A stretch of DNA of 51,837 nucleotides from an uncultured bacterium (GTDB lineage: Bacteria > Patescibacteriota > Minisyncoccia > Phycocordibacterales > UBA2100): contig CAINVT010000013.1 in assembly GCA_903854215.1 (NCBI GenBank), forward strand, positions 1 to 51,837, in the 5' to 3' direction. The notes beneath the pieces were generated by a model, which was given only the letters and a program-made list of their open reading frames with translations, did not search any database and was not told the DNA's origin. Made by a program: the position numbers and the translations under genes. Shown in pieces: positions 2,008 through 50,149 of the stretch. Position 1 is the first letter of the stretch. Each line of letters opens with the position of its first letter.

Positions 2008-2030
2008 ACGTCCGATAAAAATCCTTTTTG

Positions 2031-2178
2031 CGGGCGATGAGGGATCGGTCAGGGATAATTTCTGCGCCTGATTTAGCAAAATCACCTACTGGGTTCGCGC
2101 AGAAATTTCCACGACCCTGCCTCGCCGCCCGTTCTACTGAACGGGACCCCGGCTGCGGCTTTCGATTCCCTCATCGCC
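2031..2178. repeat. tRNA-Trp-3'-end-flanked palindromic element (element E1)
   Basis: Left arm GGCGATGAGGGATCG and right arm TTCGATTCCCTCATCGCC are inverted copies of the tRNA-Trp T-arm/acceptor 3' end; core shared with elements at 19.5 and 27.5 kb. Confidence 0.75.
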
Positions 2179-3409: not shown

Positions 3410-3457
3410 ATTGTTCAGTTGATATTCGATTCCAGGACTACAATGGAGATTCCTGCC

Positions 3458-4072
3458 ATGAGTGCGCAAATCATCTCGCTCCAAAACGCTAAAAGAAGTC
3501 GCGTGCGTTGTCCCGAGACCGGCGTCGTCTTCCCTCAGTTATATCGTCTTACCGGCTTTCACTTCAAACTGAAAGCGGGCAGGACATTGGTCGATGGGTT
3601 CCTCAAAAGCGATGACGACCTTGAGGCCGATCTGAACGCCCCCACTCCCCCAGCCTACACGCTGGATGCGGAGACGCTCTATGGCGGCGTTGCCGACCCG
3701 AAGTGGGAACCCATCCATCAACTTGATACGACGATCGATGACTGGCTGGTCTATATTCGACATCACGCGAGCGGCGGCGATTTGGAGGCCTACATCGACG
3801 CGATGTGCGATACCGAGACGTATGAGATCGATGATCGTTGGTTGGGTTTCCACACAGAATTCGGGAGCTTCTCTGTCCTCCACCGCAACGCGAATCGTGA
3901 CGCTCCGAATTGCGCGCTCGTGTACGTGACCAAGATCGGCGATCCACTGTACGGTGGGACGATGGACTGGCACAAAGTCATCGGTAGCGACGGCGAGGAA
4001 ATGGACATCGACGATCTCAATCCGCCGGAAGTTCAGGAGCAGATGGCTCCTATAAAGAACCTGGCGAAATGA
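3458..4072 (+). CDS. Hypothetical protein (~204 aa)
   Basis: ORF with upstream GGAG Shine-Dalgarno, promoter upstream, terminator downstream; no recognised domain. Confidence 0.7.
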   Translation: MSAQIISLQNAKRSRVRCPETGVVFPQLYRLTGFHFKLKAGRTLVDGFLKSDDDLEADLNAPTPPAYTLDAETLYGGVADPKWEPIHQLDTTIDDWLVYIRHHASGGDLEAYIDAMCDTETYEIDDRWLGFHTEFGSFSVLHRNANRDAPNCALVYVTKIGDPLYGGTMDWHKVIGSDGEEMDIDDLNPPEVQEQMAPIKNLAK

Positions 4073-4097
4073 CAATAAATGATCGGCTGATGAGCCG

Positions 4098-4136
4098 GGA
4101 CCCAAGTAGCGATACTTGGGTCCATCTTTTTTTGCA
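4098..4136 (+). terminator. Intrinsic terminator
   Basis: GACCCAAGTA-GCGA-TACTTGGGTC followed by T7. Confidence 0.85.
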
Positions 4137-4196
4137 TGAAAATGCCGCCCATATACCGGGGCGGCGTCGGTTAGAACTGTTTTGGTAGACACAACA

Positions 4197-6467
4197 TCAC
4201 CCTTGCGATTGTAGGCGTGGTGTCTGTGTTTCCGAAGGCGGATCGAGAGCCGAACACACGGGGCAACCTATCGCCTCATGTAATCGCTCGCGCGGCGATG
4301 CCATGTAGGCAAAGCCACATGACCTGCATACCCACCAGTACGCGGCAGTACTTCCTTGCGAGACATACGCCGCTCCTGCTGAATTGCGTTCCGAATACTC
4401 GTTTGAAAGAACCGGGTGTTCGGCGACGCTGGGTCCGATTGTCTCTTCAGACTCTTTTTTCGGGTTATGGCAACGTGGACACGAACGATCCGCGATACGT
4501 TGTCTGACAGATGCCCACCACTTGTGAGCACAGTAGGGGCACAGCCAATAACGATCGCGATTGCTGTGGATCGATATATTTGGAGCAAGATGAGTGAACT
4601 CAAGTTCTGCTGCCAGATCGGGATAGACCAGATCGAGCTGCGTTTCCTTGCTCGCTATCCTACCCGAGCAGACCGGACACCCAACTCCCTTTTTCAGGCG
4701 AGCTGCAGTCCGTCCCCTCCACTCATGTCCACATTTGTCGCACTGCCACCACGGAACTGGCGATGGCAAGATGTTTCGAGCGGAATATTGTTGGAACAAA
4801 TCATGACGCTCGATGGAAAGTGTGTTGAGCGTCGACCGCTCAAAACACTCCGGGCAACCGTGACCGGCGGCGAATCGCCGAACACGGGAAGCTCCGATCT
4901 CGTCCCATTCGTAGCCGCATGTCGCATCCGTGCATTGCCACCGAAGAGTGTGGCTGCTGTGCGGAGTCACCTGAGTTGCGGGCAGTTCGTTCTTGGCCGA
5001 ATACTCCTTCACGAGTTGCGGGAAGCAAAACGCAAGATTGTTTTCTGCCGTAACGACCTTCCCTTCGCACGCCGGACATTTCGACCCTGAAAGGCGTCGG
5101 ATACCGGATGCCTGCCACTCGTAGTGACATTTATGACACTCCCACCAGAGAATGGCGGAGGTGCGAGCATACACGCGATCGGCGGTCGTAATGTTCTTGG
5201 AGGAATAATCCTTGGCGAGCCGCGGAATCTCCGAGACATATTTAGGCCGCATTCCCTCAAGAAGGTCGAGAACTTTGATGACCTTCTCATTGAAATGCAA
5301 CCTGCTACCGCTCTGACTACTCGCCTGCTGGCTTTCTCGTTCACTCCGCTGCCAACGAGGACCATTGCCCGACTCGCGCCTGGCACGCTCCCCTTCGACT
5401 TTCTTCCAGAGACTTTGGACCATCTTGATCCGTTCGCAGTTGGCGACAAAATCAAGAGCGATCACCCGGTCTTTTCCTTGAAAGCGACGTAAGCCGCGGC
5501 CAAGTTGTTGCGAGAAGATATTGGGCGACTCGGTTGAACGAAGAAACGCGAGAACGTTCGCCTGTGGAATGTCGATCCCTTCGTTGAAGCAGTCGACAGT
5601 CACAGCCGTCGTCACCATTCCCTGACGGAATAGTTCCATACGGATATTTCGCTCCTTCATCGGCACGCGGGAGTGGATCGCCAGACTGCCTGGCATAGAT
5701 TCACAGAACTTGTCACACTTATCGAGCGATGAGGTGAAGACGATGATGCGCGGATCGGCGAACTCGGCGGCATGCCGAGCGATGATTGCCGCGATCTCCT
5801 CGTCCCCTTTCTCGACGAAGATCCGCTTGTTGAGTTCACTGACAGAGATCTTTGATCCCGGCCGCGCAAGCGCGGCGTCGATGCTCATTTCATCAGCAAG
5901 TAGCCGATAGTCGACGGGCGTGAGTAGCCCGTTCGCCATCGCCACTTCGAGCGGCAGGTAGAAGAGTTCCGGGCCATAGAGATCCCGAATATCCAGACCA
6001 TCCAACCGATCTGGTGTCGCGGTAACACCGAGTAGCCAGTCAGGAGTGAAATACTCGATGACCGACCGATAGGTCTGCGCTTGTGAATGGTGGCTTTCGT
6101 CAACCACGATGTACTCGAACGCTTTCGGATCGAAGGATCGGAAATGCTGGCCCATGGTTTGGAATGACGCGAAAACGCCATCCATGTTGTGGACCTTTTT
6201 TTCCTGCCCGTGAAAGTAGCCGAACGAGAGCTTGTTCTCCAAGACTGACTCGAACGTGGTTCGGGCCTGGTAAAGAATGTCGTTCTGGTCGCACAAGTAC
6301 ATGAAGCGACCCTTGCACGACTCCCGCCACTGCCGGACGTCAAACGCAACCGTTACTGTTTTTCCGAGTCCGCTCGCCATGACGACCAGACCCTTTTTCT
6401 TTCCTGTCTGACGGGCGACTTGTACTTGCCCGAGACAGTCGCTCTGGTAGTCATACGGCTCAAACAT
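4197..6467 (-). CDS. SF2 DEAD/DEAH helicase with five C-terminal zinc-ribbon (DUF4379-like) repeats
   Basis: Walker A-like VMASGLGKTVT, DESHH box, QQLGRGLRR motif VI; five WxCxxC...CPxC repeats. Start trimmed to MFEPYDYQ with SD GGAG. Confidence 0.88.
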   Translation of the reverse strand: MFEPYDYQSDCLGQVQVARQTGKKKGLVVMASGLGKTVTVAFDVRQWRESCKGRFMYLCDQNDILYQARTTFESVLENKLSFGYFHGQEKKVHNMDGVFASFQTMGQHFRSFDPKAFEYIVVDESHHSQAQTYRSVIEYFTPDWLLGVTATPDRLDGLDIRDLYGPELFYLPLEVAMANGLLTPVDYRLLADEMSIDAALARPGSKISVSELNKRIFVEKGDEEIAAIIARHAAEFADPRIIVFTSSLDKCDKFCESMPGSLAIHSRVPMKERNIRMELFRQGMVTTAVTVDCFNEGIDIPQANVLAFLRSTESPNIFSQQLGRGLRRFQGKDRVIALDFVANCERIKMVQSLWKKVEGERARRESGNGPRWQRSERESQQASSQSGSRLHFNEKVIKVLDLLEGMRPKYVSEIPRLAKDYSSKNITTADRVYARTSAILWWECHKCHYEWQASGIRRLSGSKCPACEGKVVTAENNLAFCFPQLVKEYSAKNELPATQVTPHSSHTLRWQCTDATCGYEWDEIGASRVRRFAAGHGCPECFERSTLNTLSIERHDLFQQYSARNILPSPVPWWQCDKCGHEWRGRTAARLKKGVGCPVCSGRIASKETQLDLVYPDLAAELEFTHLAPNISIHSNRDRYWLCPYCAHKWWASVRQRIADRSCPRCHNPKKESEETIGPSVAEHPVLSNEYSERNSAGAAYVSQGSTAAYWWVCRSCGFAYMASPRERLHEAIGCPVCSALDPPSETQTPRLQSQG

Positions 6468-6531
6468 TGAGCTTCTCCGTTTGAGTGGACTCAGCATGAC
6501 GCTGTGTCAACGAACACGTTTATCTCTTCGC

Positions 6532-6596
6532 AAGATATCATTCAAACAACAATACGTCAAATAAATATTGACATGATGTCAACTTAAATATACAAT
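6532..6596. promoter_or_regulatory. Divergent promoter pair with palindromic operator-like site
   Basis: + strand TTGACA(6568)-17-TACAAT(6591); - strand TTGACG(6560)-17-TATCTT(6537); palindrome TTGACA-TGA-TGTCAA at 6568-6582. Confidence 0.6.
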
Positions 6597-6645
6597 AGTT
6601 TGAGACGTATATGCCGATCTTTTCAACTTCACGAGGAGGCAAACC

Positions 6646-8100
6646 GTGACGCATACAGAAGCTTTCGACTTCCGAGAGCTCGAGGCGCGCGGTTTCAAGC
6701 CGCAAGCTAGAGGCATTCTCGAAAAGGCAATTTCCCGCGGGAGAATCTTCCCTCAGGAGATTTCCATGATCCTCTCTGGATCCATCGCTAGCGACCGGCA
6801 ACAGGTTTCAAAGACGGTTGTCTGGCTTGGTACGGAGCTGCGGCGCCTGAGTGTGACCGTCGCGACCGGCAAGGACGTTGTGGAATTCAAGCATGAGGTC
6901 GTTCCGTTTGTGAACGGCTCCGGTGCTAATCCAAAATCTAACGGAAAGCGTCTCAACGGCAAGGCCGTAGAAAAGCCACCTGCCGAAGAGAAAGAAGGAA
7001 CTTCTGGTCAGGAAATTCTCCTACCTTCGGAAGAGACTCCGGAAACGGATGCGCTCGACGAGGGTCCAGTAGGACCGCAAGAGCTCGACGAGGCAGAGGT
7101 GGCAAGAGTGAACGCCGCCATGCTCGAAGATCAAGGCTCGCGCTTCGAGTCCGACGCGCTCGCGTGTTACTACAAAGAACTCGCGCGCTTCAAGTTGCTG
7201 ACATTCGAGGAGGAATTCCAACTCGGATGGCAAGTGAAAGAAAAGCAGGATCACGCGGCGCGCAACAAACTCGTCGAGCACAATCTTCGGCTCGTCCGGT
7301 GGGTCGCGCGCAAGTATGCCTGGAGCGAACTTCCCTTCGAGGATCTAATCCAAGAAGGAAACATCGGTCTGATGATCGCGGCGGATAAATACGACTACCG
7401 CGTCGGCAGATTTACCACCTATGCAATGTGGTGGGTCCGTCAAAGGATCACTCGTGCAATCATGGACTATGGCAGCCTCATCCGCGTCCCGGTCCACTTG
7501 CAAGAGAATCGATTGAAGGTCGTGAAGGCAGCCGGAGAAATCGCGTTCAAGACCGGTCGTCAACCGACCTTGGCCGAGGTCGCTGAAGCTACCAAGCTTC
7601 CGGCGAAAATGGTGCAGGCAATCCTAACTCGGACAAGCATCAAGGTGATCTCGCTTGATCAACCTGCATTTCGAGGCGATTCGTCGGACCGATTTTCTCA
7701 CCCGATGAGTTATGCCGAGATCATGCCTGACCACATGGCGCTCGATGGTACCCACATCATCGAGGCACGTGACGAACTCCAGGCGGCTCAAAGACGAGTC
7801 GCCGGCGTAATAAAGGCGATCGAGTCGATTGGTTCACCTTCCCGTGGCCCCAGTGGACCAACTAACGGACATTATGCGAGCATCTTTCGCACGTTCTACG
7901 GTCTCGATGGTTCGGCAGAAAGGAGAACCCTCGAAGAAACTGGTGCTGTCTACGACGTCACACGCGAGCGGATTCGTCAGGTTATCGCCAAGATCTGGGC
8001 CAATCTCGCGGAACAAGGGTTCGACATGGACCACGATGCCTTCCTTCAGGAGATGTCGTGCATCGAAGAACTCTCGAAGCTCGTCCATACGGCTTCATAG
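6646..8100 (+). CDS. Sigma-70 family RNA polymerase sigma factor (RpoD-like)
   Basis: Region 2 NLRLVRWVARKY..LPFEDLIQEGNIGLMIAADKYDYRVGRFTTYAMWWVRQRI and region 4 ...VTRERIRQVIAKIW; GTG start after AGGAGG. Confidence 0.93.
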   Translation: MTHTEAFDFRELEARGFKPQARGILEKAISRGRIFPQEISMILSGSIASDRQQVSKTVVWLGTELRRLSVTVATGKDVVEFKHEVVPFVNGSGANPKSNGKRLNGKAVEKPPAEEKEGTSGQEILLPSEETPETDALDEGPVGPQELDEAEVARVNAAMLEDQGSRFESDALACYYKELARFKLLTFEEEFQLGWQVKEKQDHAARNKLVEHNLRLVRWVARKYAWSELPFEDLIQEGNIGLMIAADKYDYRVGRFTTYAMWWVRQRITRAIMDYGSLIRVPVHLQENRLKVVKAAGEIAFKTGRQPTLAEVAEATKLPAKMVQAILTRTSIKVISLDQPAFRGDSSDRFSHPMSYAEIMPDHMALDGTHIIEARDELQAAQRRVAGVIKAIESIGSPSRGPSGPTNGHYASIFRTFYGLDGSAERRTLEETGAVYDVTRERIRQVIAKIWANLAEQGFDMDHDAFLQEMSCIEELSKLVHTAS

Positions 8101-8107
8101 CTCATTT

Positions 8108-8143
8108 ACCCACCCGTCTTAGTTGACGGGTGGCTCTTTTTTA
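8108..8143 (+). terminator. Intrinsic terminator
   Basis: CCACCCGTC-TTAGTT-GACGGGTGG CTC T6. Confidence 0.85.
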
Positions 8144-8150
8144 TAATCGA

Positions 8151-8179
8151 TTGACTTTTTCTGGTAGTCATCGTATTTT
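8151..8179 (+). promoter_or_regulatory. Sigma-70 type promoter
   Basis: TTGACT-17 nt-TATTTT. Confidence 0.5.
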
Positions 8180-8212
8180 CCTTGGAGAGTTTCCTGAAGT
8201 AAGAGGTAAGCT

Positions 8213-9178
8213 ATGAGGGACGGCAACTTCTCATTCGAGGGTGATGTCCCCTTGGCATCTTCCTCGATACGGACCTGTTCGATTTGTGGGAAGCGCTTAT
8301 CGGCGCACAATAAAATCGGACGGTGTTTCCATCATCCAGATCCTGCAGTTGAAAAGAAAAGCTTGGAGCGAGATGCTCAAGCTTCAGCAGCAATGGAAAG
8401 GAGATCGCGACAGCATGTTGTAACTACGCGAACGGCCACTTTGGCCGATATCCCAGTACCTGCTTCAGGCGGAAAAACAACGACCGCAACCGGAACCAGG
8501 AGGAATCCAGTCCCACGCGGACGAACGGGCTATCTGGTCCAGAAGACAAAGTTCTTTGAACTTCTCGCGGGAAAGGAAAAAGAACTCTTCGACGAACTCT
8601 TCAGATTGGGTCGGGAAGAAGCCTCGTATGCAGCCCGATATTTCTGCATCAATGGCGAACCTGAAAAGACCCACGGGGAGCTGGTCAAAGAAGGAACCTT
8701 TCCTTCTATCGGTGTCGAGGGGTGGGCGATCGTTTGTGCTTCCGCGATACTTCGCTATTTAGATCCCGCGTTTCCGGTTTCTAAGCACACAGCAATGCAC
8801 GCTCAAAACATCCGGAGCTGGGTGCTGAAACACAGGGACGTGGCGGCAGATTCGCAGGAGCGGCAACGACGGTATGAAGATGTACTGACAAAGATTCAAG
8901 CTGTAGGCATCTCTCAACTGCCGAAGGCTATGCCAGAGCGGTACTACAACTTCTACCTTGAACTCGCACGAGCATGGGACAAAAATAAGTTCGCCGAACT
9001 AAAGCAGCACGCACGGCTCGCTTCCATCATCGGCACACGATGGGGGTTTGAGGATGGATGCTTCTACACGCTCGAAGAGATCGCTGATGTCGAGCAGATA
9101 ACCCGAGAGCGTGTCCGCCAGATAGAACAAAAAGCACTCAAGCTACTCGGAGTGATAGCAAAGCCCTCGGAAACTTAG
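8213..9178 (+). CDS. Zinc-finger plus sigma-70 region-4-like DNA-binding protein
   Basis: N-terminal CSICGKRLSAHNKIGRCFHH; C-terminal TLEEIADVEQITRERVRQIEQKALKLL. Confidence 0.75.
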   Translation: MRDGNFSFEGDVPLASSSIRTCSICGKRLSAHNKIGRCFHHPDPAVEKKSLERDAQASAAMERRSRQHVVTTRTATLADIPVPASGGKTTTATGTRRNPVPRGRTGYLVQKTKFFELLAGKEKELFDELFRLGREEASYAARYFCINGEPEKTHGELVKEGTFPSIGVEGWAIVCASAILRYLDPAFPVSKHTAMHAQNIRSWVLKHRDVAADSQERQRRYEDVLTKIQAVGISQLPKAMPERYYNFYLELARAWDKNKFAELKQHARLASIIGTRWGFEDGCFYTLEEIADVEQITRERVRQIEQKALKLLGVIAKPSET

Positions 9179-9179
9179 T

Positions 9180-9213
9180 GGGAGCCGCCAACATGATTGG
9201 CGGCTCTTTTCTT
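9180..9213 (+). terminator. Intrinsic terminator
   Basis: AGCCGCCAA-CATGA-TTGGCGGCT followed by CTTTTCTTT. Confidence 0.8.
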
Positions 9214-9283
9214 TGGAGTTTAAGTGAACTTCAACGATCCCAAGACGGTCGCATTTCGGTAAGGAATTTAGCAGCATCTGCCC

Positions 9284-9312
9284 TTGACGTGATGGTGGAA
9301 ATATGCTAATAA
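9284..9312 (+). promoter_or_regulatory. Sigma-70 type promoter
   Basis: TTGACG-17 nt-TAATAA. Confidence 0.5.
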
Positions 9313-9358
9313 GTGCGTAGAGTGCCCTTCGACAACTTCATACGCACAGGAGAGACCA

Positions 9359-11053
9359 ATGTCCCTTAAAGCCATCGATACGTTAAGCACCTCGCAGAGG
9401 GATACCCTGAACCTCCTGGCGGAAGGCCTTGGAAACGTTCAGATCGCCCAACGGTGCCGAACCTCGCTTGATCGCGTCGGCGGCATGCTCGAGGATCTCT
9501 ACGATGCCCTCGGGCTAGAGCCGAGTCTGCCCAAACAGGAAAAGCGTGGACTGGCGATAAACCACTGTAAAAGAAACAGCACGGGAATGACCCTCTTCGA
9601 ACAAACGACTCCTGCTGCCTTCTTGGAGGGTCTTAAACCCTGGCAACGTCAAGCTCTGACGGGAGTCGCACAGAATAAGAAAACCGAAGATATCGCGGCA
9701 GAAGTCGGAGTCACCACGGACGACATCGAAATGACCCTTGCTCGATTTATGGTGTCGGTCAAAGTACCGACCCAAGATAAGGCAATCGAGTTTCTCAAGC
9801 AGGTGGTGAACGTCACAGGCCAACCGATCGAACCAGGACGCGGTTATTCCAGTAGTGGTGACAGGCAAGCATCTCCGCAAGCACAAACGACTGCCGACCC
9901 GGCAAAAGTTTCTGCACAGCCGTCAAACGTTACCTTGAACGAACAAGATCAGCGGATCGACAAAATCCTCATCCTCGTCGAACAGGGAAAAAGCAACGAC
10001 GAAATCGCTGATAAACTCAAGACAACCGTCGGAACGATCGGCACGGCGATGTCCGGTCTATATCGTCGTTTCAACTTGGAAAGACAACCAGGCGGAAACA
10101 AAAAGGAAAGACGCATGCTTCTGGTCAAACATTGGCGCACATATCAAGCGGACGCCGCCGATCAGAAAAATCAACGTGCCGAGCCTCAAATGCCCGCCAC
10201 CCCTGAAGATCCTACATCGGTGGTCGTGCCGCAGGAGAAAGTTACTATACAGAGCGCACCTTCCGAATTGGTGCCAGCTTCGGCGGACTCGACGGAGGAA
10301 ACGGTTCCTGCAGTTGCTTCCATTGCATCGGCAGAAACGGTTACTCAGAACAATGTCGAATGCACACTCACCCTCGAGCAGGCATTCGAGCGCATAGTCG
10401 CCGCTGGTCGTGCGGCACCTTCTGAGCGATCATTGCAACGTTATTGCCTTGAGGGCCGTCTCGTCGCACAAAAGGCGCGTACAACCCTTGGTTCTGAATG
10501 GCTTATCAATGCAGCGTCGTTAGTACGCTTCATCGAGTTGGAACCGCTTGCTCGTGAAAACGACGGTGCTATGGCGGTTGCCTCTGGAGAAACGGTGTTC
10601 TTGAAACCGCCGACCAACGCCGCGGAGAAGAAGGAAAATAAATACCAACTCGCGCGTGACCTGGTGATTCGGACGAGAAATTGCACAAACTTTTTCGTCC
10701 GACGGAAACTTTGCATGGGCGGCCCCGAGTTCAAGGACGTCATCCAGCGGTTGGAAGACGAAGGAGTCGTCGGCAAAATCGGCAGCGGCGATCGCGGCGG
10801 CCGTCAAATATTGCTACCGCCGCCGCAAGATGCTGTCGCGCAGGATACTTCGTTCGCTACCGATCAGGTTCGACAGAACCGGTCGTCGTCGAGATCGATA
10901 TTCTCCGACAACGAGAAGACCGAGAAGCTTCAGGAGCTCCTATTGGTGGTCGGCGACAACAGCCAACTGGGACAGATCCTGGATGAGATCATCGACGATC
11001 TCGCACGTATGGAGAAAATGCGCCAGATTATCAAGCTCCTCAAAGAGGACTGA
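9359..11053 (+). CDS. Multi-HTH regulator: three LuxR-like HTH segments, an excisionase/HTH_17-like segment, and an FtsK-gamma-like winged helix
   Basis: LSTSQRDTLNLLAEGLGNVQIAQRC; LKPWQRQALTGVAQNKKTEDIAAEV; LVEQGKSNDEIADKLKTTVGTIGTAMSGLYRRF; YQLARDLVIRTRNCTNFFVRRKLCMGGPEFKDVIQRLEDEGVVG resembles FtsK gamma. Confidence 0.7.
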   Translation: MSLKAIDTLSTSQRDTLNLLAEGLGNVQIAQRCRTSLDRVGGMLEDLYDALGLEPSLPKQEKRGLAINHCKRNSTGMTLFEQTTPAAFLEGLKPWQRQALTGVAQNKKTEDIAAEVGVTTDDIEMTLARFMVSVKVPTQDKAIEFLKQVVNVTGQPIEPGRGYSSSGDRQASPQAQTTADPAKVSAQPSNVTLNEQDQRIDKILILVEQGKSNDEIADKLKTTVGTIGTAMSGLYRRFNLERQPGGNKKERRMLLVKHWRTYQADAADQKNQRAEPQMPATPEDPTSVVVPQEKVTIQSAPSELVPASADSTEETVPAVASIASAETVTQNNVECTLTLEQAFERIVAAGRAAPSERSLQRYCLEGRLVAQKARTTLGSEWLINAASLVRFIELEPLARENDGAMAVASGETVFLKPPTNAAEKKENKYQLARDLVIRTRNCTNFFVRRKLCMGGPEFKDVIQRLEDEGVVGKIGSGDRGGRQILLPPPQDAVAQDTSFATDQVRQNRSSSRSIFSDNEKTEKLQELLLVVGDNSQLGQILDEIIDDLARMEKMRQIIKLLKED

Positions 11054-11076
11054 GAAACTGGCGAAGCAGAGACTCG

Positions 11077-11108
11077 CCCCGATCCAAAAGATCGGGGCTT
11101 CTTTTTTA
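11077..11108 (+). terminator. Intrinsic terminator
   Basis: GCCCCGATC-CAAAA-GATCGGGGC TTC T6. Confidence 0.85.
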
Positions 11109-11155
11109 CGATATAAAAGAAAACCACCGGCCCGAAGGTCGGTGGTCATTTCGCA

Positions 11156-12949
11156 TTATTTTGGAATGGCGGTTGCCCACCAGAGAGTCCTTTTGACGAT
11201 CGGCCCCAAATCGGTATGCCGTTCGTAATTCCATGCCAACCCGACCACTCTCTCGGCCTCCATGGTCGAGCCGACAGGTAGCTTCCTCGGCGTCGATCCT
11301 GGCACGTCACTTATGTAGTCGCTCGAGACTTGCGATCGGTTGAATACGCAATCGGAGAGACCTGCGACGATCCATTTTGCTTGCAACGTCCGATGCGGCC
11401 TGGTTTGGGTAAGACCGAGCCGGGCCAGACGCTCGACTACAAGAGCGCGTTGCTCTTCCAGCCGCTTGAAGGTCGTAGGATCAATGCCGTACTCGCTCAG
11501 TTTGTGTGACGGAATGAGACACGCCGCGTCAAAGGTTTTTATGTCCTTGAACGCGTCGGAATCTCCAAGTTCGACATATTCCCCGGTGATGAACTCGCGT
11601 CCCTCCTCCGTTTTGAACTCGATCTGTCTCGAACCGAAAAGCACCGAGAGCGTGATCGCGTTGTAGTCGGCTGTCTTGTTTTGCCAGTCCACCGCCTCGA
11701 GCAACATTCGAGCCGCTCGCGGTTGCATGGGTAGTAGTGCAGCCTTCCTTCCGAGTTCCGTGATCCGATCTTGTGCATCCACGAGGCCGATCCTTTTGAG
11801 AACCTCTCGTGCTTCCCTGATGTGATCAAGGGCAGGCGGGTGGAAGAACGCGAGTTCCTCCGGTTCGTACCCAGCAGACAAGACATGCAATACGACCCCC
11901 GATATGTCTTCTTTGATGATCGAAGGAGTCGAGAACAGTGCTCGTTCGGGAAGCGGGACATCGGAGCAGTCGATATAGAAGCCGGACTTCGTCCGACCCG
12001 CACGGCCGCGACGCTGTTCCCGCTCGGCGAGAGCTACGGGTCTTGTATAAAGCCCGTTTACACCATTCTTGTATTCCTGCCCCCTTTGAAGCCCGCTGTC
12101 GACGACTGCGTCGATGTCGGGAATCGTGAGGGAGGTCTGCGCGATAGTGGTCGCGACGATACATTTTGGTTCATCGAAAGATTCGAAGATCCAACCGATA
12201 TCGTCGGCGTTAAGATCGGCATGGAATGGCAGACACTTCGCCGACACTCCGGAGCGCTCCACACTTTGTATCGTCCGTCTGATCTCCTCCTTGCCGGGAA
12301 CGAATACGAGCACGTTGTGGCCGCGCTTAAGCATTCGGACCGCTGCCCCCGCCGCGTGTCCTGTGTGTTCGATTTCTTGAACGGGAAACGGCTTGCCCTC
12401 GCAGTTGATAACTTCAGCGTCGCCGAAGAATTCAGCAAGTTGGTCCGCCTCAATCGTTGCCGAGAGAATGACAATTTTGATTTGCGTTCCCTCGGACAGT
12501 TGTCGCTTGAACCACGCGATCAGAAGCTCCAAGTTCAAGTTCCATTCGTGAGCTTCATCGATCACGAAAACGGTTTCCGTGGGATTCTTCGCGTGATGGA
12601 GCTGACGCAGAACTTCGATGCCGTCGGTGCAGTAGAGGAGACGCGTATCGGATGAGACCCGTTCGCTATATCCCGTCTGAAATCCGACCAGGCCGCCAAT
12701 TTCTGCCTTCATCTCGAAGGCGACATGACGCGCCAGTGACTCTGCCGCAACTCGACGCGGTTCGGTAACTACGACGAGCTCGAACATGTCCAGCAACATA
12801 ACCGGGATCTTGGTGCTTTTGCCGGTTCCCGTTGGGGCGACGACGATGACGACATTGTGGGCCTTGAGGGCTTCCAATATGTCATCTCTGTGTTGCTCGA
12901 CTGTGGAAAAAGTCGGGGTTGAGGTGACAATCTTTGCTAAGGCTTCCAT
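11156..12949 (-). CDS. DEAH-box helicase, HrpA/HrpB-like
   Basis: VVAPTGTGKSTKIP, DEAHEWNLNLELL, LSATIEADQLAEFF, QRRGRAGRTKSG. Start trimmed to MEALAK. Confidence 0.88.
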   Translation of the reverse strand: MEALAKIVTSTPTFSTVEQHRDDILEALKAHNVVIVVAPTGTGKSTKIPVMLLDMFELVVVTEPRRVAAESLARHVAFEMKAEIGGLVGFQTGYSERVSSDTRLLYCTDGIEVLRQLHHAKNPTETVFVIDEAHEWNLNLELLIAWFKRQLSEGTQIKIVILSATIEADQLAEFFGDAEVINCEGKPFPVQEIEHTGHAAGAAVRMLKRGHNVLVFVPGKEEIRRTIQSVERSGVSAKCLPFHADLNADDIGWIFESFDEPKCIVATTIAQTSLTIPDIDAVVDSGLQRGQEYKNGVNGLYTRPVALAEREQRRGRAGRTKSGFYIDCSDVPLPERALFSTPSIIKEDISGVVLHVLSAGYEPEELAFFHPPALDHIREAREVLKRIGLVDAQDRITELGRKAALLPMQPRAARMLLEAVDWQNKTADYNAITLSVLFGSRQIEFKTEEGREFITGEYVELGDSDAFKDIKTFDAACLIPSHKLSEYGIDPTTFKRLEEQRALVVERLARLGLTQTRPHRTLQAKWIVAGLSDCVFNRSQVSSDYISDVPGSTPRKLPVGSTMEAERVVGLAWNYERHTDLGPIVKRTLWWATAIPK

Positions 12950-13094
12950 TGTCGTGATCCTTCTATGTGAATGTGCACTAAGAAATACTATACAATCAAT
13001 TGTAGATAAAATCAATACCGCCGTCGGTCAAAAAGAAAACGGGCCGGTATTCATTGCCGACCCGTTGAGCCGAGACACACTCGGCGAAGAATAA

Positions 13095-13637
13095 TCACGT
13101 GGTCACTGCCTCCGACCGCATTTTCCTTCTATGACTTATTGCGGTATTCGTGACCTTGGCGACCCCAAGCTCGTTGGGTTCCTCCAGTTCAAAGCGCTTG
13201 GGAAATTGGCCCTGCATTTCGAAGCGAAGGTTGAGCCGCCCCTCCTCGGCGTGGACAAATCCGTAGTGCCTTGTCCAGAATCTCATGGCGAGATCGTCGA
13301 GGTAAGATTCGACCGATTGATCGAGGCCGTCGCCGGAGCGATTGAACTCGAATGACACGACCGTGTAATTCTTCACCTTCGCGAGACGCTCTTGTCCCGT
13401 CGCTTTGGTTAGAACAAATCCCGACTCGACAAGCCGATCCCGGATGAAATCGGCTGAAACTGGCGCGTCAAATTCGAGCATTTCGCCACGATGTGCCTGA
13501 CTTCGAGCCCGACGCGCGGTGCCCTGTTCTTGCGTCTCTCTTGAGACCGCGATACCGACGGGAAACGAGTGAGTTTCAAGCGGACCGGAAAGCTTGAACT
13601 GAACAAGAACTTTCTGCACACATGAGAGAGCGGCCAT
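13095..13637 (-). CDS. Hypothetical protein (~181 aa)
   Basis: ORF with SD-like AAGGGGA upstream of MAALSCV; no recognised domain. Confidence 0.6.
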   Translation of the reverse strand: MAALSCVQKVLVQFKLSGPLETHSFPVGIAVSRETQEQGTARRARSQAHRGEMLEFDAPVSADFIRDRLVESGFVLTKATGQERLAKVKNYTVVSFEFNRSGDGLDQSVESYLDDLAMRFWTRHYGFVHAEEGRLNLRFEMQGQFPKRFELEEPNELGVAKVTNTAISHRRKMRSEAVTT

Positions 13638-13776
13638 TGTTCGTCCCCTTTTCAACAGAATGGCACCGATATAATGCTGTGTATTATTAAAGCTGTCAAT
13701 CCCGACATTTGTTACCAACAGCCGGGGCTCGACAACACCCTTGACTCCCCTATGGGTCAGCGTCATCCCCTAGGGT

Positions 13777-15099
13777 ATGGAAACTACAACAATAGCTGTA
13801 GGGGTTATTAGCAAACCAGAGGTTCAAGAGGCAAAGAAAGTGAAGTACTGCTTGTATGCGAGGAAGAGCACTGAATCGGAAGAACGTCAGATACTTTCGA
13901 TTGACTCCCAGATCAAAGAGATGTTGCAACTCGCGGAACGCGAGAGGCTTGAGGTCGTATCAATGAAGCGCGAGTCGCACTCGGCAAAAGAGACCGACCA
14001 GCGACCGGTATTCAACGAGATCATCGCTGAGATTCGTGCAGGCAAGTACAACGGCATCCTCACCTGGGCGCCAGATCGCATCAGTAGAAATGCCGGCGAT
14101 CTTGGCAAGGTCGTCGACCTTATGGATTCTGGCGGCCTGCAGGAGATCCGGACATACAGTCAGAGTTTCAGAAACAATCCGAATGAGAAATTCTTGTTGA
14201 TGATCCTCGGCTCGCAGGCGAAGCTCGAGAATGATAACCGTGGCATCAATGTGAAGCGCGGACTGCGCACGCGCGTCGAAATGGGCCTCTGGCCCGGTCT
14301 CGCACCGACCGGCTATCTCAATCAGCGATTAATGGACAAGAAGTGCCAAGTGATCGTCGATCCGGAACGAGCACCCGTCATCAAGAGGGCTTTCGAGAAG
14401 GTGGCATACGACGGATGGTCTGGCCAGAAGGTATATCACTGGCTTCGGTTTGAACTCAACTTCTACACGACCGGCAACAAGCCGCTCTCGCAGGGCAACC
14501 TCTATCGTCTCTTTATCAATCCCTTTTACTACGGCGTCTTCGAATACCCCAAGAAGAGCGGCAACTGGTACCAGGGCAAACACGAGCCACTGATCAGTAA
14601 GGAGCTGTACGATCTCGTGCAGAGTAAGCTCAGGCGTGAGAGCACAATACGGCGGACGCATGAGTTCGCCTTCACCAAGCTCATCATCTGCGGCCTATGT
14701 GGATCAACGTTCAGCGCCGAAGAGAAATACAAACAGCTCAAGGACGGCACGGTCGCCAAATACATCTATTACGGATGCTGCCGGTCGAAAGACCGGATGT
14801 GCAAGAATAGCTATTTCCGCGAGGAAGAATTGATAGATGAACTGGTAAAGCTGATCGATCAGATCAACTTTAACGACGTCGGCATCCAGAAGAAACTCGA
14901 GGATGAGCTGAAGCGGTTCAATAAGTTTCAGCGGGTCGTGCTTGGCATGACCAACTCACAAAACACGCACGAAGAAGTCGACTTAAAAACCTACGTCAAA
15001 TACACGCTAAAGAATGGTTCGAACGAGGAGAAGCGCGAGCTGATGGGATGCTTCAGATCGAAGATACAGATCACGAAGGGTGTGCTGACGATCGAATGA
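13777..15099 (+). CDS. Large serine recombinase/site-specific recombinase
   Basis: N-terminal YCLYARKSTESEERQILSIDSQ, resolvase SRNAGDLGKVVDLMD, Recombinase domain, zinc-ribbon CGLCGSTFSAEEKY...YGCCRSKDRMCKN. Confidence 0.93.
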   Translation: METTTIAVGVISKPEVQEAKKVKYCLYARKSTESEERQILSIDSQIKEMLQLAERERLEVVSMKRESHSAKETDQRPVFNEIIAEIRAGKYNGILTWAPDRISRNAGDLGKVVDLMDSGGLQEIRTYSQSFRNNPNEKFLLMILGSQAKLENDNRGINVKRGLRTRVEMGLWPGLAPTGYLNQRLMDKKCQVIVDPERAPVIKRAFEKVAYDGWSGQKVYHWLRFELNFYTTGNKPLSQGNLYRLFINPFYYGVFEYPKKSGNWYQGKHEPLISKELYDLVQSKLRRESTIRRTHEFAFTKLIICGLCGSTFSAEEKYKQLKDGTVAKYIYYGCCRSKDRMCKNSYFREEELIDELVKLIDQINFNDVGIQKKLEDELKRFNKFQRVVLGMTNSQNTHEEVDLKTYVKYTLKNGSNEEKRELMGCFRSKIQITKGVLTIE

Positions 15100-15172
15100 T
15101 CGTATCGTCTCAGACAGACTTCAGAATGGGAACCTTTGACCATTCCAGAATGGACATTTATCCTGTATCTAC

Positions 15173-15469
15173 ATGCAAATCATCCAAGGCGTCCTTATAA
15201 CCATTATTGCCGCTTTTATCATCTATTGGCTCGGGATTGGTGGATCAAAGACCGTCATCACAATCGAGGGCACGCGAGTCACCAAGAAGTGGAAAGTGCT
15301 TATCGTGATCGGCTGGATCATGTTTGTAGGAGGCGGTCTTTATTGCCTTTCATGGGCTTCGGTGTCTGGATTCAATAACCCTAAAACCGGCATTGGGTTC
15401 TCATTGGCCTTCGTCGGCCTAATCATACTCTTTATTGGAAAGTTTGGCGCTTGGTGGAATCGACACTGA
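15173..15469 (+). CDS. Small membrane protein (~98 aa)
   Basis: Three hydrophobic segments. Confidence 0.6.
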   Translation: MQIIQGVLITIIAAFIIYWLGIGGSKTVITIEGTRVTKKWKVLIVIGWIMFVGGGLYCLSWASVSGFNNPKTGIGFSLAFVGLIILFIGKFGAWWNRH

Positions 15470-15480
15470 TGATTCTGAGG

Positions 15481-16587
15481 TCATTGATCATATCGAATGA
15501 CTCTTCGTACAATACGATTCTCAGGTATGTTCTTAATCTTCGATTCGACAAATTGAATGACCGTCAGACCCGTCTCAGTCCTTGAGATGATTTCCCTGAG
15601 GGCCGGAAAAATGTGCAGTTGAGTTCCTTCACCACCCTCCCCCTTGAAGTGCTTCAGCCAGACGAGGGCGTGCTTGGTATTTCTCCTCATCTCGATAAGA
15701 GTCACGGTTACGCTTTCAACACCCAGGAAAACGATGTACTCGTATTCCTCATTGCGATTCAATCGTTTCCCTTTTGCTACGGCCTTCTGGGCCTGCTCAT
15801 ACATAAAGGCCTGAGTTTGGGGAGGAAGGAAACTACACATGCATCTGCTCCGTCCGATCGTCGGTGAGTTTATAACCAGACAGTCGTGCCTAAAACACGT
15901 ACTGACGTGCTTCTCTGTAGCGCCGCCATATTCTATAAACAAAATATCTGGTTGCCAGCGCCCTCCATTTCCGTCGATTAAAAGGCCGCAGAAAGCTCCT
16001 CCTATCCCTCTCTCCATCTGCGGACTAAAAAGATTGTAGCTCTGGAAAATTCCCAAGAGAGCGCTCAAAGCCCACTCCGGTTTATCAGGAATCTTGGACA
16101 ATACATCTCTTATCCACGTTTCGGTTAACTGCCTATGGATAGGAAGCGGATTACCAATCTGCACTATTTCCTCGTTCTCACTGATCTGGCTATCGTGATT
16201 AGCGTTGAATGCGATAAGTCTTGGAGTGCCGTCGTGATATGCAACAACCATTTGCAATGTCCTCCCTTGTGGAAATGGGTTTGCGAAAAGAGCCCAGTTT
16301 AATGCTTCTCGCGGAATATCTCCTTGATCGATTCTCTCGTAGAACGAGGTGGCAACTCGTATTGCGAGCCCATAGCTACCAGCAAATGTAATGCCTATAT
16401 TTTTCCTTAGGAACAGCTTCACCACCCTTTCCTCGACTCGCGCATCCTCTTGTTCGTTAAGAACGTGTGCCTGACCAAAACTCGATTCAACAACGTGAAA
16501 ATTTAAAGGGTCCGGCGGGCTGGTCAGCGCCGTGTCCGCAGCAAGAAAAACTTCCGAATCAGATTTCCAAGCTAAGGCGTACGTCAT
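15481..16587 (-). CDS. Proteasome-beta-fold (Ntn-hydrolase-like) protein
   Basis: MTYALAWKSDSEVFLAADTALTS...KLFLRKNIGITFAGSYGLAIRVA resembles proteasome beta/HslV N-terminal pattern with Thr after initiator Met. Confidence 0.6.
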   Translation of the reverse strand: MTYALAWKSDSEVFLAADTALTSPPDPLNFHVVESSFGQAHVLNEQEDARVEERVVKLFLRKNIGITFAGSYGLAIRVATSFYERIDQGDIPREALNWALFANPFPQGRTLQMVVAYHDGTPRLIAFNANHDSQISENEEIVQIGNPLPIHRQLTETWIRDVLSKIPDKPEWALSALLGIFQSYNLFSPQMERGIGGAFCGLLIDGNGGRWQPDILFIEYGGATEKHVSTCFRHDCLVINSPTIGRSRCMCSFLPPQTQAFMYEQAQKAVAKGKRLNRNEEYEYIVFLGVESVTVTLIEMRRNTKHALVWLKHFKGEGGEGTQLHIFPALREIISRTETGLTVIQFVESKIKNIPENRIVRRVIRYDQ

Positions 16588-16596
16588 AATGGGGCA

Positions 16597-17391
16597 TTAA
16601 GCCGCAAACGGGTCGAGAGGATCATTGTTGACTACAGGTGTCGCATCGCGTATCTCTCTTGTCGCATTGGCAGGAATCCCGCCCGAAGGTAGGACGTATA
16701 GTCCTGCGCAACCTCGCGCGGTATCGGCACTTTGAGGACCTAGGTCTTTCCAGTCATAAATATTTAAGGCAAAAATGCACATCCATGCCTCATCGTTGTC
16801 TGACTTTACCCAAAAACATTCGTACGTGAATTTGTCTCGGTTACAGATAATCTTGTCCAGATTACCGTTCTCACGATTGCCTTTGATAGCCTCGACAAAC
16901 TTCGAGTGCTGCGGCTTGATATCTTCCATCACAATTTTTCCATCAACAATCGAACCGATTGGAAAAGGGGTCTCCAAGGTTCCGAACGTATCGATTCCTA
17001 TTCGGACAGCAGGTTCGCGATAGAGCGCCGCGTGAAAACCGGAAATCCATCTCCAGATTGCCTCTTTGATATTAAGGTCACCAGCATCTATCGCGGGACT
17101 GCCTCCGACTTTTTTAAGCTTCAGGCGCACATCCTTTGGGTCGCTCGGTATTCGTCCTGACTGTGGAGCGAGAAGTTGACCCATCATCTCATCGGTCAGA
17201 TTATGCGCATTGTTGCATGCCTTATGTGTCGGCAATATGAGCGGGTCTCTGTGGTCTGTATGAAAGATAGTTTTCGGCGGCAGGTGGTCTCGATCTGTCT
17301 CATCAAGCGGTACAAAATTACCTCCGCACAAATAGCAAAAAGGGAGCGTCTGAACCGCCCTTCGATTAGTTTGGGTTTCCAAAATCACCAT
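16597..17391 (-). CDS. HNH-endonuclease-like protein
   Basis: FCYLCGG...DRDHLPPKTIF...LPTHKACNNAHN: C..C, DH.P, H..CN. Confidence 0.75.
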   Translation of the reverse strand: MVILETQTNRRAVQTLPFCYLCGGNFVPLDETDRDHLPPKTIFHTDHRDPLILPTHKACNNAHNLTDEMMGQLLAPQSGRIPSDPKDVRLKLKKVGGSPAIDAGDLNIKEAIWRWISGFHAALYREPAVRIGIDTFGTLETPFPIGSIVDGKIVMEDIKPQHSKFVEAIKGNRENGNLDKIICNRDKFTYECFWVKSDNDEAWMCIFALNIYDWKDLGPQSADTARGCAGLYVLPSGGIPANATREIRDATPVVNNDPLDPFAA

Positions 17392-17473
17392 GACCTTGAT
17401 ACTACATGGAAAGTCTCGGCAGCGCATCGCAGGGGTAGGCCCTCGACATACTACCGATACTAATTTTCAAGAG

Positions 17474-17544
17474 CGGGCGATGAGGGAATCGAACCCCCGA
17501 CATCGGTTTTGGAGACCGAAGTTATACCATTTAACTAATCGCCC
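17474..17544 (-). tRNA. tRNA-Trp (CCA anticodon)
   Basis: Cloverleaf GGGCGAT...TCGGT-CTCCAAA-ACCGA...GGGGGTTCGATTCCCTC-ATCGCCC; CCA not encoded. Confidence 0.95.
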
Positions 17545-19383: not shown

Positions 19384-19466
19384 GCGTCGGTGGCGGAGTG
19401 GTCAATCGCACTTGGCTGTAAACCAAGCGACTTCGGTCTACGGGGGTTCGAATCCCTCCCGGCGCA
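19384..19466 (+). tRNA. tRNA-Tyr (GTA)
   Basis: GCGTCGG acceptor pairs CCGGCGC; anticodon stem CTTGG-CTGTAAA-CCAAG; long variable arm. Confidence 0.95.
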
Positions 19467-19516
19467 CAAAAACAGTTAGGGCCCAGAGCATGTCTCTGGG
19501 CTCTTACTGTTTTCAG

Positions 19517-19640
19517 CCAGGAGGGATTCGAACGGACGGAGGCACGGGACCCACAGCTTGCTGTGGGACGCCGAGTCAGGGCAGTGACCACTTAGCGCAT
19601 GGCGCTTAGTGAGTCACGCTCGATTCCCTCCTGGGCGCAA
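19517..19640. repeat. tRNA-Tyr-3'-end-flanked palindromic element (element E2)
   Basis: CCAGGAGGGATTCGAACG ... CGCTCGATTCCCTCCTGG inverted arms matching the tRNA-Tyr T-arm; internal hairpins CCCACAGC/GCTGTGGG and GTGAC.CACTTAGCGC/GCGCTTAGTG.GTCAC. Confidence 0.8.
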
Positions 19641-27352: not shown

Positions 27353-27424
27353 GGCCTGGTGGCGAAGTGGTAACGCGTGAGTCTGCAAAACTCTTATGCG
27401 TGGGTTCGATTCCCACCCAGGCCT
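27353..27424 (+). tRNA. tRNA-Cys (GCA)
   Basis: GGCCTGG/CCAGGCC acceptor; TGAGT-CTGCAAA-ACTCT anticodon arm. Confidence 0.95.
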
Positions 27425-27457
27425 CAGAATGGGAATACGGTGCGTGTGCACCATATG

Positions 27458-27565
27458 TTGGGAATCGAAAGCCGCAGCGCTGTCGCTTTGCGACCGCGAG
27501 GCCGGGCCGGCGGTACTTAGCGCCGCAGCGCTTAGTAACCGTGGCCGATTCCCACACAGGCCTCA
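27458..27565. repeat. tRNA-Cys-3'-end-flanked palindromic element (element E3)
   Basis: Inverted TTGGGAATCGAA and direct CGATTCCCACACAGGCCTCA (19/20 identical to tRNA-Cys 3' end 27407-27426); core shared with E1 and E2. Confidence 0.8.
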
Positions 27566-27658
27566 AAAGTTTGTCCGTATGGTAGATTTATATGTATGCC
27601 TCACTTCACCAAGGCTTCGCGGGGCAATGTCCACCGTCGCGAAGGCTTTGGCGAGAAT

Positions 27659-30410: not shown

Positions 30411-30448
30411 AAGCGATATGGGCAGCTCCTGTGGATAAACTTATTGGG

Positions 30449-30559
30449 TGTGTCCCTGGCTGCAAGACTTTCACCGTCGGGATTTTTCTGCTGAAAAATC
30501 CCTCCGTTTCGCGCCAGTCGCGCTGCAAAGACGGTGAAAGTCTTGCAGCCAGGGACACA
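30449..30559. repeat. Long perfect inverted repeat (30-bp arms) with conserved core
   Basis: TGTGTCCCTGGCTGCAAGACTTTCACCGTC (30449-30478) and exact reverse complement (30530-30559); core 30494-30529. Confidence 0.95.
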
Positions 30560-30570
30560 TCCCGATAAAC

Positions 30571-39632: not shown

Positions 39633-39654
39633 CTCACTACAAACAGGTAATTTT

Positions 39655-39694
39655 ACAAAGCTCAGAGTTTGGTTACCAAGCTCTGAGCTTTGTA
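39655..39694. repeat. Palindromic repeat
   Basis: ACAAAGCTCAGAGTTTGGTTACCAAGCTCTGAGCTTTGT. Confidence 0.85.
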
Positions 39695-40250: not shown

Positions 40251-40968
40251 GGAGGTTAAACCTCCTTCCGTAATAGGTCTATAATGCGAGCTATATGGGA
40301 AGGGGTCTTTCCTTTGCACCGGGGGAGTTTTATCACGTATACAATCGTGGCACTGAGAAGCGTCGCATTTTTTGTAATGTGTATGACTACAAGCGTTTTT
40401 TGGCACTTTTATACATCTGCAATCAAAACAAACGTATCGAACTGACCAAATCAGGAATAACAAACGTATTCGCGACGACCCGAGCCGGAGAACCCCTCGT
40501 TCATATCGTCACCTACTGTTTGATGCCAAATCATTTTCACTTGGTTCTCAGGGAGAACATCGTCGGCGGTATCAGTCTTTTCATGCAGAAGGTCACGACC
40601 GCCCATACGATGCATTTCAATAAAAGGAACGGACGGACCGGAGCGCTTTTTGAAAGTTCGTTCAAGGCTCGTCATATTGGAGACGACGTATATTTCAAAT
40701 ATCTGATCGCATATGTACATTTGAATCCCATCAAACTCATTGAACCGCAGTGGAAAGAGACGGGTATCAATGATCATATACAGGCACGCACATATCTGGA
40801 TCATTACACCTATTCAAGCTATCTCGACTATTGTGGGGTCAAGCGCCCCGAAAACGTGATCATCGACGAAAGCATATTACCAACATTTTTTGATGTCCCT
40901 ATGGATTTCAAATCATGCGTCACAGAATGGCTCAACTACGCTTCCCCACCGGAGGAGGTTTAACCTCC
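40251..40968 (+). mobile_element. RAYT unit flanked by palindromes
   Basis: GGAGGTTAAACCTCC (40251-40265) and GGAGGTTTAACCTCC (40954-40968) flank the Y1 transposase. Confidence 0.75.
40295..40963 (+). CDS. REP-associated Y1 transposase (RAYT)
   Basis: FYHVYNRGTEKRRIF, LMPNHFHLVLRE (HUH motif), NGRTGALFESSFKARHI. Confidence 0.92.
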   Translation: MGRGLSFAPGEFYHVYNRGTEKRRIFCNVYDYKRFLALLYICNQNKRIELTKSGITNVFATTRAGEPLVHIVTYCLMPNHFHLVLRENIVGGISLFMQKVTTAHTMHFNKRNGRTGALFESSFKARHIGDDVYFKYLIAYVHLNPIKLIEPQWKETGINDHIQARTYLDHYTYSSYLDYCGVKRPENVIIDESILPTFFDVPMDFKSCVTEWLNYASPPEEV

Positions 40969-45571: not shown

Positions 45572-45719
45572 GCGTATCAGTCGCGATATGCCCGACGGGG
45601 TCTTTGCAGCGCGACCGGCGCGAAACGGAGGGATTTTTGATTCTGCAGAATCACGTCGCGTACTGTCCTTTTGACGCGACGAATTCCCGACCCCGTCGGG
45701 CATATCGCGACTGATACGC
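45572..45719. repeat. Long perfect inverted repeat (31-bp arms) with conserved core
   Basis: GCGTATCAGTCGCGATATGCCCGACGGGGTC and exact reverse complement (45689-45719); core 45603-45638. Confidence 0.95.
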
Positions 45720-49398: not shown

Positions 49399-50149
49399 CT
49401 TCAAGTCAGACTTGATGGTATTAAAAAACCCGCATGGTCAGCCTTTCTATCCTGCCACGCACCCACCATGTCTTTGACATCGGACTTAAATTTTCTAGAA
49501 CTTTCATAGAGTGCGAAAAGCATATTGTCGGTTTCGGGCATGATGGGTGAGGACTGCCATCGCGCATATTCTCGCAGACTCGAATAGGGATATTCCAATG
49601 CCTGATCCCAACTCTGGTTGAACGATGCGACTGCGGCCGGAATACCACCTGGGAGAATTTCAAACACGTTTTTTCCCATCACGTACGCACTGACGTAGCG
49701 CAGATCTTCATCACTATCAATACTGCGTGCTTTGTAACTCCCCTGGAACAGCGAGCCCTGTTCGTTATGGAGCGCGTTAAAATATTTTGTCATGCTGCCG
49801 CAGAGTCGTTGCATAAATTTAGCGACGCCACCCTCGATCTCCTCCCGAAGAATCAGGTGAAAATGATTCGACATTAACGTCCAGGCGAGTACTTGTACTA
49901 TCGGCTCTCGTTTTTTCCAACTATTTTGCCAGCACAATTTCATCTCATGCCCGACAGATAATTCCCAGTCCCGCGAAGGCTGGGTCGAGTTGAGGTAAAA
50001 TAGATTTTCGATAAAACGTTGTTTCTCCCGTCCTGACGGAGCAATTACTACCCCGCGAGTCCCTCTCTGGATGACATGCAGATACGATCCGACAGTGTGT
50101 TTTTCTACGCGCATAAGGTAAGGCATAAGTCTAACTTCAAGTCAGACTT
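49391..50149 (-). mobile_element. RAYT unit flanked by direct copies of a palindrome
   Basis: AAGTCTGACTTCAAGTCAGACTTGATG (49391) and AAGTCTAACTTCAAGTCAGACTTGATG (50127). Confidence 0.8.
49401..50126 (-). CDS. REP-associated Y1 transposase (RAYT)
   Basis: LHVIQRGTRGVVI, TLMSNHFHLILREE (HUH), EQGSLFQGSYKARSI. Confidence 0.92.
   Translation of the reverse strand: MPYLMRVEKHTVGSYLHVIQRGTRGVVIAPSGREKQRFIENLFYLNSTQPSRDWELSVGHEMKLCWQNSWKKREPIVQVLAWTLMSNHFHLILREEIEGGVAKFMQRLCGSMTKYFNALHNEQGSLFQGSYKARSIDSDEDLRYVSAYVMGKNVFEILPGGIPAAVASFNQSWDQALEYPYSSLREYARWQSSPIMPETDNMLFALYESSRKFKSDVKDMVGAWQDRKADHAGFLIPSSLT

What the first reader, a model, noticed from the sequence alone, without database searches (positions are those of the whole stretch)
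27353..27566. tRNA-Cys copy (E3): 19/20 direct duplication of the tRNA 3' end 139 bp downstream
CGATTCCCACCCAGGCCTCA (27407-27426, tRNA-Cys T-arm to just past the gene) recurs as CGATTCCCACACAGGCCTCA (27546-27565). Between them lie the inverted T-arm TTGGGAATCGAA, a hairpin TGTCGC/GCGACC, the conserved linker, and ACTTAGCGC/GCGCTTAGT, the latter also in E2. This resembles a target-site duplication at a tRNA, but the insert is only ~120 bp with no gene. GCTGCGGCTTTCGATTCCC (19 nt) is identical between E3 (minus strand) and E1.
Basis: seen in the sequence. Interest (0 to 1): 0.72.

Follow-up and report, generated by a model that had tools for sequence, protein, structure and literature searches.

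The report
Gene-less mobile element behind tRNA genes
The 139-bp repeat behind this cysteine tRNA gene is one copy of an apparently undescribed family of tiny gene-less elements that sit at the ends of tRNA and a few protein genes across Patescibacteria, fold into a conserved shape, and carry both a copy of the host gene's end and a short antisense stretch matching the insertion site.

Summary
The tRNA-Cys 3' end (T, 27408-27426) is recopied (T'', 27547-27565) with an inverted copy (T', 27460-27469) and two further hairpins between. E3, E2 (tRNA-Tyr) and E1 (copy of tRNA-Trp, 15.4 kb away) belong to one family, absent from Rfam 15. A covariance model finds it in 45/52 genomes of the genus (Ca. 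Kaiserbacteria), 179/247 of the order and 43/380 of the phylum.

Of 100 aligned copies, 85 follow a same-strand tRNA (17 isotypes). T'' matches that tRNA in 64/85, against 0.3% for other isotypes. Stems covary strongly (464 double changes; shuffled 125). Other targets are tmRNA and the 3' ends of topA and probably rpsI. The two topA ends differ mainly at synonymous sites (pS 0.77, pN 0.10), so one came from another genome: the elements move between genomes rather than arise by local duplication.

T' is complementary to the target on both sides of the junction (3 nt on the gene side). I infer a folded single strand carrying a replacement gene end and a built-in target guide, joined at C|R by an unidentified enzyme. 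Mobility is well supported; the chemistry is not shown.

The parts
27353..27425 (+). tRNA-Cys (GCA), host gene of E3
   Evidence: ARAGORN; Rfam
27408..27426 (+). E3 T: tRNA 3' part from about T-loop position 57 on; proposed left end of the element (carried gene end)
27436..27455 (+). E3 H1 hairpin
27460..27469 (+). E3 T'b (GGGAATCGAA), complementary to TTC|GATTCCC of the tRNA; proposed guide
27471..27502 (+). E3 H2 hairpin with GSA/GA internal loop
27505..27546 (+). E3 P3/H3 hairpin, GGCC..GGCC base, ACTTAGCGC/GCGCTTAGT; right end of the element
27547..27565 (+). E3 T'': displaced tRNA 3' end copy
19384..19467 (+). tRNA-Tyr, host gene of E2
19450..19467 (+). E2 T (tRNA-Tyr 3' end)
19468..19513 (+). 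E2 H0 terminator-like hairpin, also present at tRNA-Tyr of G033
19516..19533 (+). E2 T' (inverted tRNA-Tyr end)
19535..19577 (+). E2 H2
19579..19621 (+). E2 H3
19622..19639 (+). E2 T''
17473..17490 (-). T of tRNA-Trp (3' end), left boundary of the 15.4-kb island
2161..2178 (-). E1 T' (GGCGATGAGGGAATCGAA), complementary to the tRNA-Trp end
2119..2159 (-). E1 H2
2047..2117 (-). E1 H3 ending CCCTGACC
2030..2046 (-). E1 T'' = copy of the tRNA-Trp 3' end (one T missing), right boundary of the island
13777..15099 (+). large serine recombinase inside the tRNA-Trp island
   Evidence: Pfam Resolvase, Recombinase, Zn_ribbon_recom
30446..30562 (-). class B hairpin element e30: 33-bp arms around an H2/H3-like core; absent at the orthologous site in G033
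45572..45719 (+). class B hairpin element e45

Best explanation
E3 is one copy of a gene-less mobile element family of roughly 100-250 bp. Proposed unit: T (a copy of a host gene's 3' end), optional H0/H1 hairpins, T' (antisense of the target), H2, and P3/H3 ending in GTGACC or a like sequence. It is joined to a target gene at C|R in the tRNA T-loop (or the equivalent point near another gene's end). The gene receives the carried end T and stays intact; its own old end is left on the far side as T''. The working form is most likely the sense strand folded as a single strand. T' pairs with 3 nt on the gene side of the junction and about 7-18 nt on the other side and so names the target, much as guide and cleavage-site pairing does in IS200/IS605 elements. 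Shown here: the anatomy, its spread, the gene-specific ends, the covariation, the strand bias in wobble pairs, and the non-local origin of one topA end. Inferred: single-stranded intermediate, guide role of T', order of events. Unknown: the enzyme.
For: Spread: 265 matches in 45/52 genomes of the genus (summed), 179/247 of the order, 43/380 of the phylum. Position and gene-specific ends: 85/100 copies have a same-strand tRNA upstream, most 30-80 nt away; T'' matches its own tRNA's last 17 nt with <=3 mismatches in 64/85, other isotypes 0.28%; tRNAs without a hit show such a recopy in 9/101, with a hit 53/70. Covariation: 95.9% of cells paired, 464 double changes vs 125 shuffled. Strand: G.T 24 vs A.C 4 in H2/P3/H3, p 2e-4; wobble 1.7% of pairs vs 6.2% in tRNAs of the same loci. 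T' agrees with T, not T'', at 24 of 31 differing positions and continues for three bases across the junction onto the gene side, including rare TGC loops. Non-local ends: topA T vs T'' in four genomes pS 0.77, pN 0.10, p 2e-13; T'' decayed while T is intact in G064 and G069; G033 topA lacks the element. Core nearest neighbours share target 22/97 (shuffled 4.3), and cores also switch target. Tandem copies behind one tRNA.
Against: No enzyme identified: Y1 transposase number does not follow element number (Spearman -0.04; some genomes have many elements and no Y1); about one Xer-like recombinase per genome. No excised or circular form seen. Only species representatives, so no strain-level gain or loss. 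Model R2 contains T-loop complement, so it favours tRNA sites. Folding and sense orientation at 3' ends would also suit an RNA.
Confidence: 0.6

Rival explanations
1. A conserved structured RNA in tRNA 3' trailers (terminator, processing or tRNA-maturation switch), inherited with the gene; T', T and T'' compete for pairing.
For: Always sense strand and downstream of transcribed genes; strong covariation; G.T over A.C bias; orthologous copies at tRNA-Cys in G000, G033, G019 with a concerted A/G change in T, T' and T'' between G000 and G033.
Against: Patchy per gene; the same core behind tRNA, tmRNA and topA; topA ends that are two different coding alleles; very few wobble pairs.
Confidence: 0.2
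2. The elements are reduced attachment-site remnants of larger integrative islands such as the 15.4-kb tRNA-Trp island with its serine recombinase; the island's recombinase mobilises them.
For: E1 forms the far boundary of that island, with tRNA-Trp T at the other end.
Against: E1 and the G033 tRNA-Trp element share a missing T in T'', so E1 seems older than the island; serine integrases are not known to need folded sites; nearly all copies seen are gene-less.
Confidence: 0.1
3. Local fold-back or template-switch duplication of gene ends without any transposing unit.
For: T, T', T'' are alternating direct and inverted copies of one sequence.
Against: A core conserved across the phylum lies between them; topA ends diverged as two coding alleles.
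Confidence: 0.04
4. An intron-like RNA in the T-loop that splices T'' onto the gene, T' acting as internal guide.
For: T' is complementary to the joined ends TTC|GATTCCC.
Against: No group I or II core (Rfam); the unspliced gene is already complete; T'' decays in G064 and G069 while T stays intact.
Confidence: 0.04

Closest known systems
IS200/IS605 elements, REP/REPIN and their Y1 (RAYT) transposases
   Same: Small, folded ends; one strand used; a guide at the hairpin foot pairs with the cleavage site; non-autonomous copies; no target duplication (from general knowledge of the family).
   Different: Guide here is about 10-20 nt and gene-specific; carries a replacement gene end; no relation to Y1 copy number; no fixed tag such as GTAG.
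Integrative elements at tRNA, tmRNA and gene 3' ends (tyrosine-integrase islands, satellites)
   Same: Targets, orientation and gene-end restoration with a displaced copy beyond.
   Different: No genes, about 100-250 bp, conserved folded core with an inverted target copy, no dedicated integrase seen.
Integron cassettes (attC)
   Same: Folded single-strand site, tandem arrays behind a fixed site.
   Different: No attC boxes seen by eye, no integron integrase identified, no cassette genes.
MITEs / palindromic elements
   Same: Short, gene-less, repeated, inverted arms (class B).
   Different: Class A arms follow the target gene.
TIGR arrays (PMC12045711)
   Same: Structured guide arrays, also reported from parasitic bacteria and phages.
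   Different: There, short dual spacers with box C/D motifs next to a Tas gene; here copies of gene ends; presence of Tas genes was not examined.

Membership tests
Any Rfam 15 family | Score above a curated family cut-off | tested here: not met
   Only tRNA reaches a cut-off
IS200/IS605 or REP (Y1/RAYT) element | Hairpin-foot guide complementary to the cleavage site, one strand | tested here: met
   T' pairs 3 nt upstream of the junction; sense-strand wobble bias. That the junction is a cleavage site is inferred.
IS200/IS605 or REP (Y1/RAYT) element | Y1 transposase present with the elements | tested here: not met
   Several element-rich genomes have none; Spearman -0.04
IS200/IS605 or REP (Y1/RAYT) element | Cleavage and joining by Y1 in vitro | not testable with these tools
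   Needs biochemistry
tRNA-targeting integrative element | Gene 3' end recopied at the far boundary | tested here: met
   64/85, topA
tRNA-targeting integrative element | Integrase gene in cis | tested here: not met
   Units of about 100-250 bp are too short for one; E1 only bounds a larger island
tRNA-targeting integrative element | Dedicated integrase in the genome | tested here: inconclusive
   About one Xer-like gene per genome; serine recombinases not counted
Transposon/MITE with target-site duplication | Fixed-length duplication of the empty site, fixed terminal repeats | tested here: not met
   Copies vary in length and match gene ends; topA T and T'' are different alleles
Integron cassette | attC core boxes and IntI | tested here: inconclusive
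   No GTTRRRY-type boxes seen by eye; no second tyrosine recombinase in most genomes
Group I/II intron | Catalytic core | tested here: not met
   No Rfam hit
Viral or plasmid-borne element | Copies on phage, virus or plasmid records | tested here: not met
   none, only chance matches and one tRNA-Cys

The most novel reading that the evidence does not exclude
A phylum-wide class of gene-less mobile elements that choose their insertion site by base pairing of a built-in antisense guide on a folded single strand, change host gene by changing that guide, and keep the host gene working by carrying its 3' end with them.
Probability: 0.4. Interest if true: 0.95.

Novelty: categorically new. Interest (0 to 1): 0.85.

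Why it matters
Patescibacteria have small genomes and few recognised mobile elements, yet most genomes examined in this order carry this one, up to about 16 copies. If the guide reading holds, it is a minimal base-pair-guided insertion system aimed at tRNA, tmRNA and conserved gene ends, a new handle on gene exchange in organisms that are hard to culture, and possibly a compact targeting tool. Even as an RNA it would be a large unregistered structured family.

Tried and rejected
Target-site duplication by a cut-and-paste element: rejected because T and T'' in topA are distinct alleles. Y1 transposase as the driver by co-occurrence: no correlation. Dedicated tyrosine integrase: about one Xer-type gene per genome. 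Class B arms as copies of another locus: no third copy in G000 or G033. Viral carriage: 12 IMG/VR pattern matches looked like chance, none scored by the model. Rfam, phage and plasmid searches negative. Papers: seven library searches found no description; the library is open-access only, so an earlier description elsewhere is possible.

Full report
What is there. Between T' and T'' lie two hairpins: H2 (27471-27502) with an internal loop GCA/GA, and H3 (27505-27546). E2 behind tRNA-Tyr has the same order. E1 (2030-2178, minus) ends in a copy of the tRNA-Trp 3' end, and its T' is complementary to tRNA-Trp, whose gene lies 15.4 kb away on the same strand.

A family. Ten copies were aligned and a covariance model built (R2). 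In the window it finds E3, E2 and E1 and nothing else of weight; E1 was not among the ten. In the genus it finds 265 matches in 45 of 52 genomes (summed), in the order 179 of 247 genomes and 120 of 151 genera, in the phylum 43 of 380 genomes, including other classes, where the anatomy is the same and the right end usually reads GTGACC. Named records place the genus as Candidatus Kaiserbacteria. No Rfam 15 family matches.

Targets. Of 100 aligned copies, 85 have a same-strand tRNA upstream, of 17 isotypes, most 30-80 nt away. T'' repeats the last 17 nt of that very tRNA with at most 3 mismatches in 64 of 85, against 0.28% for tRNAs of other isotypes. tRNAs without a model hit show such a recopy in 9 of 101, those with one in 53 of 70. 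R2 itself contains T-arm complement and therefore favours tRNA sites. A search with the core of another copy led to sites at the ends of topA (G000, G017, G003, G020, with worn copies in G064 and G069), at what reads as the end of rpsI (L203, by eye), and at tRNA acceptor ends. One copy follows a tmRNA (L237). Some genes carry two copies in tandem, and in L107 the distal copy is more diverged.

Structure. Over 97 distinct rows 95.9% of pair cells are standard pairs, with 464 cells changed on both sides against 125 after shuffling, and slid structures fall to 31-44%. The alignment was fitted to the model, which leans towards it, and P1 (T' with T'') follows the target by construction, but H2, P3 and H3 do not. 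In H2, P3 and H3 (one poorly defined column pair left out) G.T mismatches outnumber A.C 24 to 4 (p 2e-4), so the sense strand is probably the one that folds; the model's own tolerance of G.U may add to this. Wobble pairs are only 1.7% of pairs, against 6.2% in tRNAs of the same loci, which hints at DNA rather than RNA pairing; this is suggestive only.

Mobility. In topA the two ends T and T'' both encode ..KTIPERCS[DN]K.C..HNPHK.. and differ mostly at synonymous sites: pS 0.77, pN 0.10 over four genomes. A local duplicate with one copy freed from selection would not look like this; one end comes from another genome. In G064 and G069 T'' has decayed while T is intact, so T serves the gene and T'' is the displaced end. 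G033, the nearest relative, has topA without the element and tRNA-Tyr with its terminator hairpin and only a T'-like remnant where G000 has E2; whether that is loss or an empty site cannot be told. Nearest neighbours among cores share the target gene in 22 of 97 cases (shuffled mean 4.3, largest 15) and the genome in 12 (mean 2.4, largest 10), with close pairs at different genes and in different families, so the cores both travel and switch target.

How it most likely works. T' agrees with T rather than T'' at 24 of 31 positions where they differ, as expected if T and T' travel together. T' also continues across the junction onto the gene side for three bases and then stops, and follows rare TGC loops (the tRNA end is off by one to a few bases in some rows of that table, so its distance columns are shifted). 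At topA it reads GTC against GAC. Those three bases are not part of the carried T, so T' looks like a guide to the target. The base of H3 (GGTC..GACC) closes the right end at the same point. This is the logic of guide and cleavage-site pairing in IS200/IS605 elements (general knowledge), with a longer, gene-specific guide. The enzyme is not known: Y1 transposase copies do not follow element copies (Spearman -0.04), and genomes have about one Xer-like recombinase.

Related hairpins. e30 and e45 share an H2/H3-like core with 31-33-bp arms. e30 is wholly absent at the orthologous site in G033, with GATAAACT on both sides of the insertion. Other class B copies do not show a consistent flanking repeat (by eye).

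The island. Between tRNA-Trp and E1 lie 15.4 kb with a large serine recombinase, helicases and sigma-factor-like genes. In G033 the same tRNA-Trp is followed by a short element and then by the ortholog of the window's NUDIX gene. E1 and the G033 copy share a missing T in T'', so E1 probably predates the island.

Limits. Species representatives only, no reads, no expression data, literature limited to an open-access library. The claim that the family is undescribed rests on Rfam, the phage, plasmid and viral collections and seven paper searches.

Noticed in passing
window 2030-17490: 15.4-kb island between tRNA-Trp and E1 with a large serine recombinase, a zinc-finger helicase, an IS481-like transposase and sigma-factor-like genes; absent from G033.
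   Followed up: partly
window 40295-40963 (+) and 49401-50126 (-): Two RAYT-like Y1 transposase genes; palindromes TACAAAGCTCAGAGTTTGGT/ACCAAGCTCTGAGCTTTGTA lie at 39654-39694 and a copy at 51314-51341, possibly their REP sequences.
   Followed up: no
window 30446-30562 and 45572-45719; G000:C36, C64, C33; G033:C22, C24: Class B hairpin elements with nearly identical cores and highly diverged but almost perfectly paired arms.
   Followed up: partly
G000:C64:8182-8302: A class B element lies just downstream of the genome's only Xer-like recombinase gene (C64:8470-9009 -).
   Followed up: no
L065, L066 (G029): A third hairpin subclass with H2 GTTGC GGA ... GA GCAGC.
   Followed up: no
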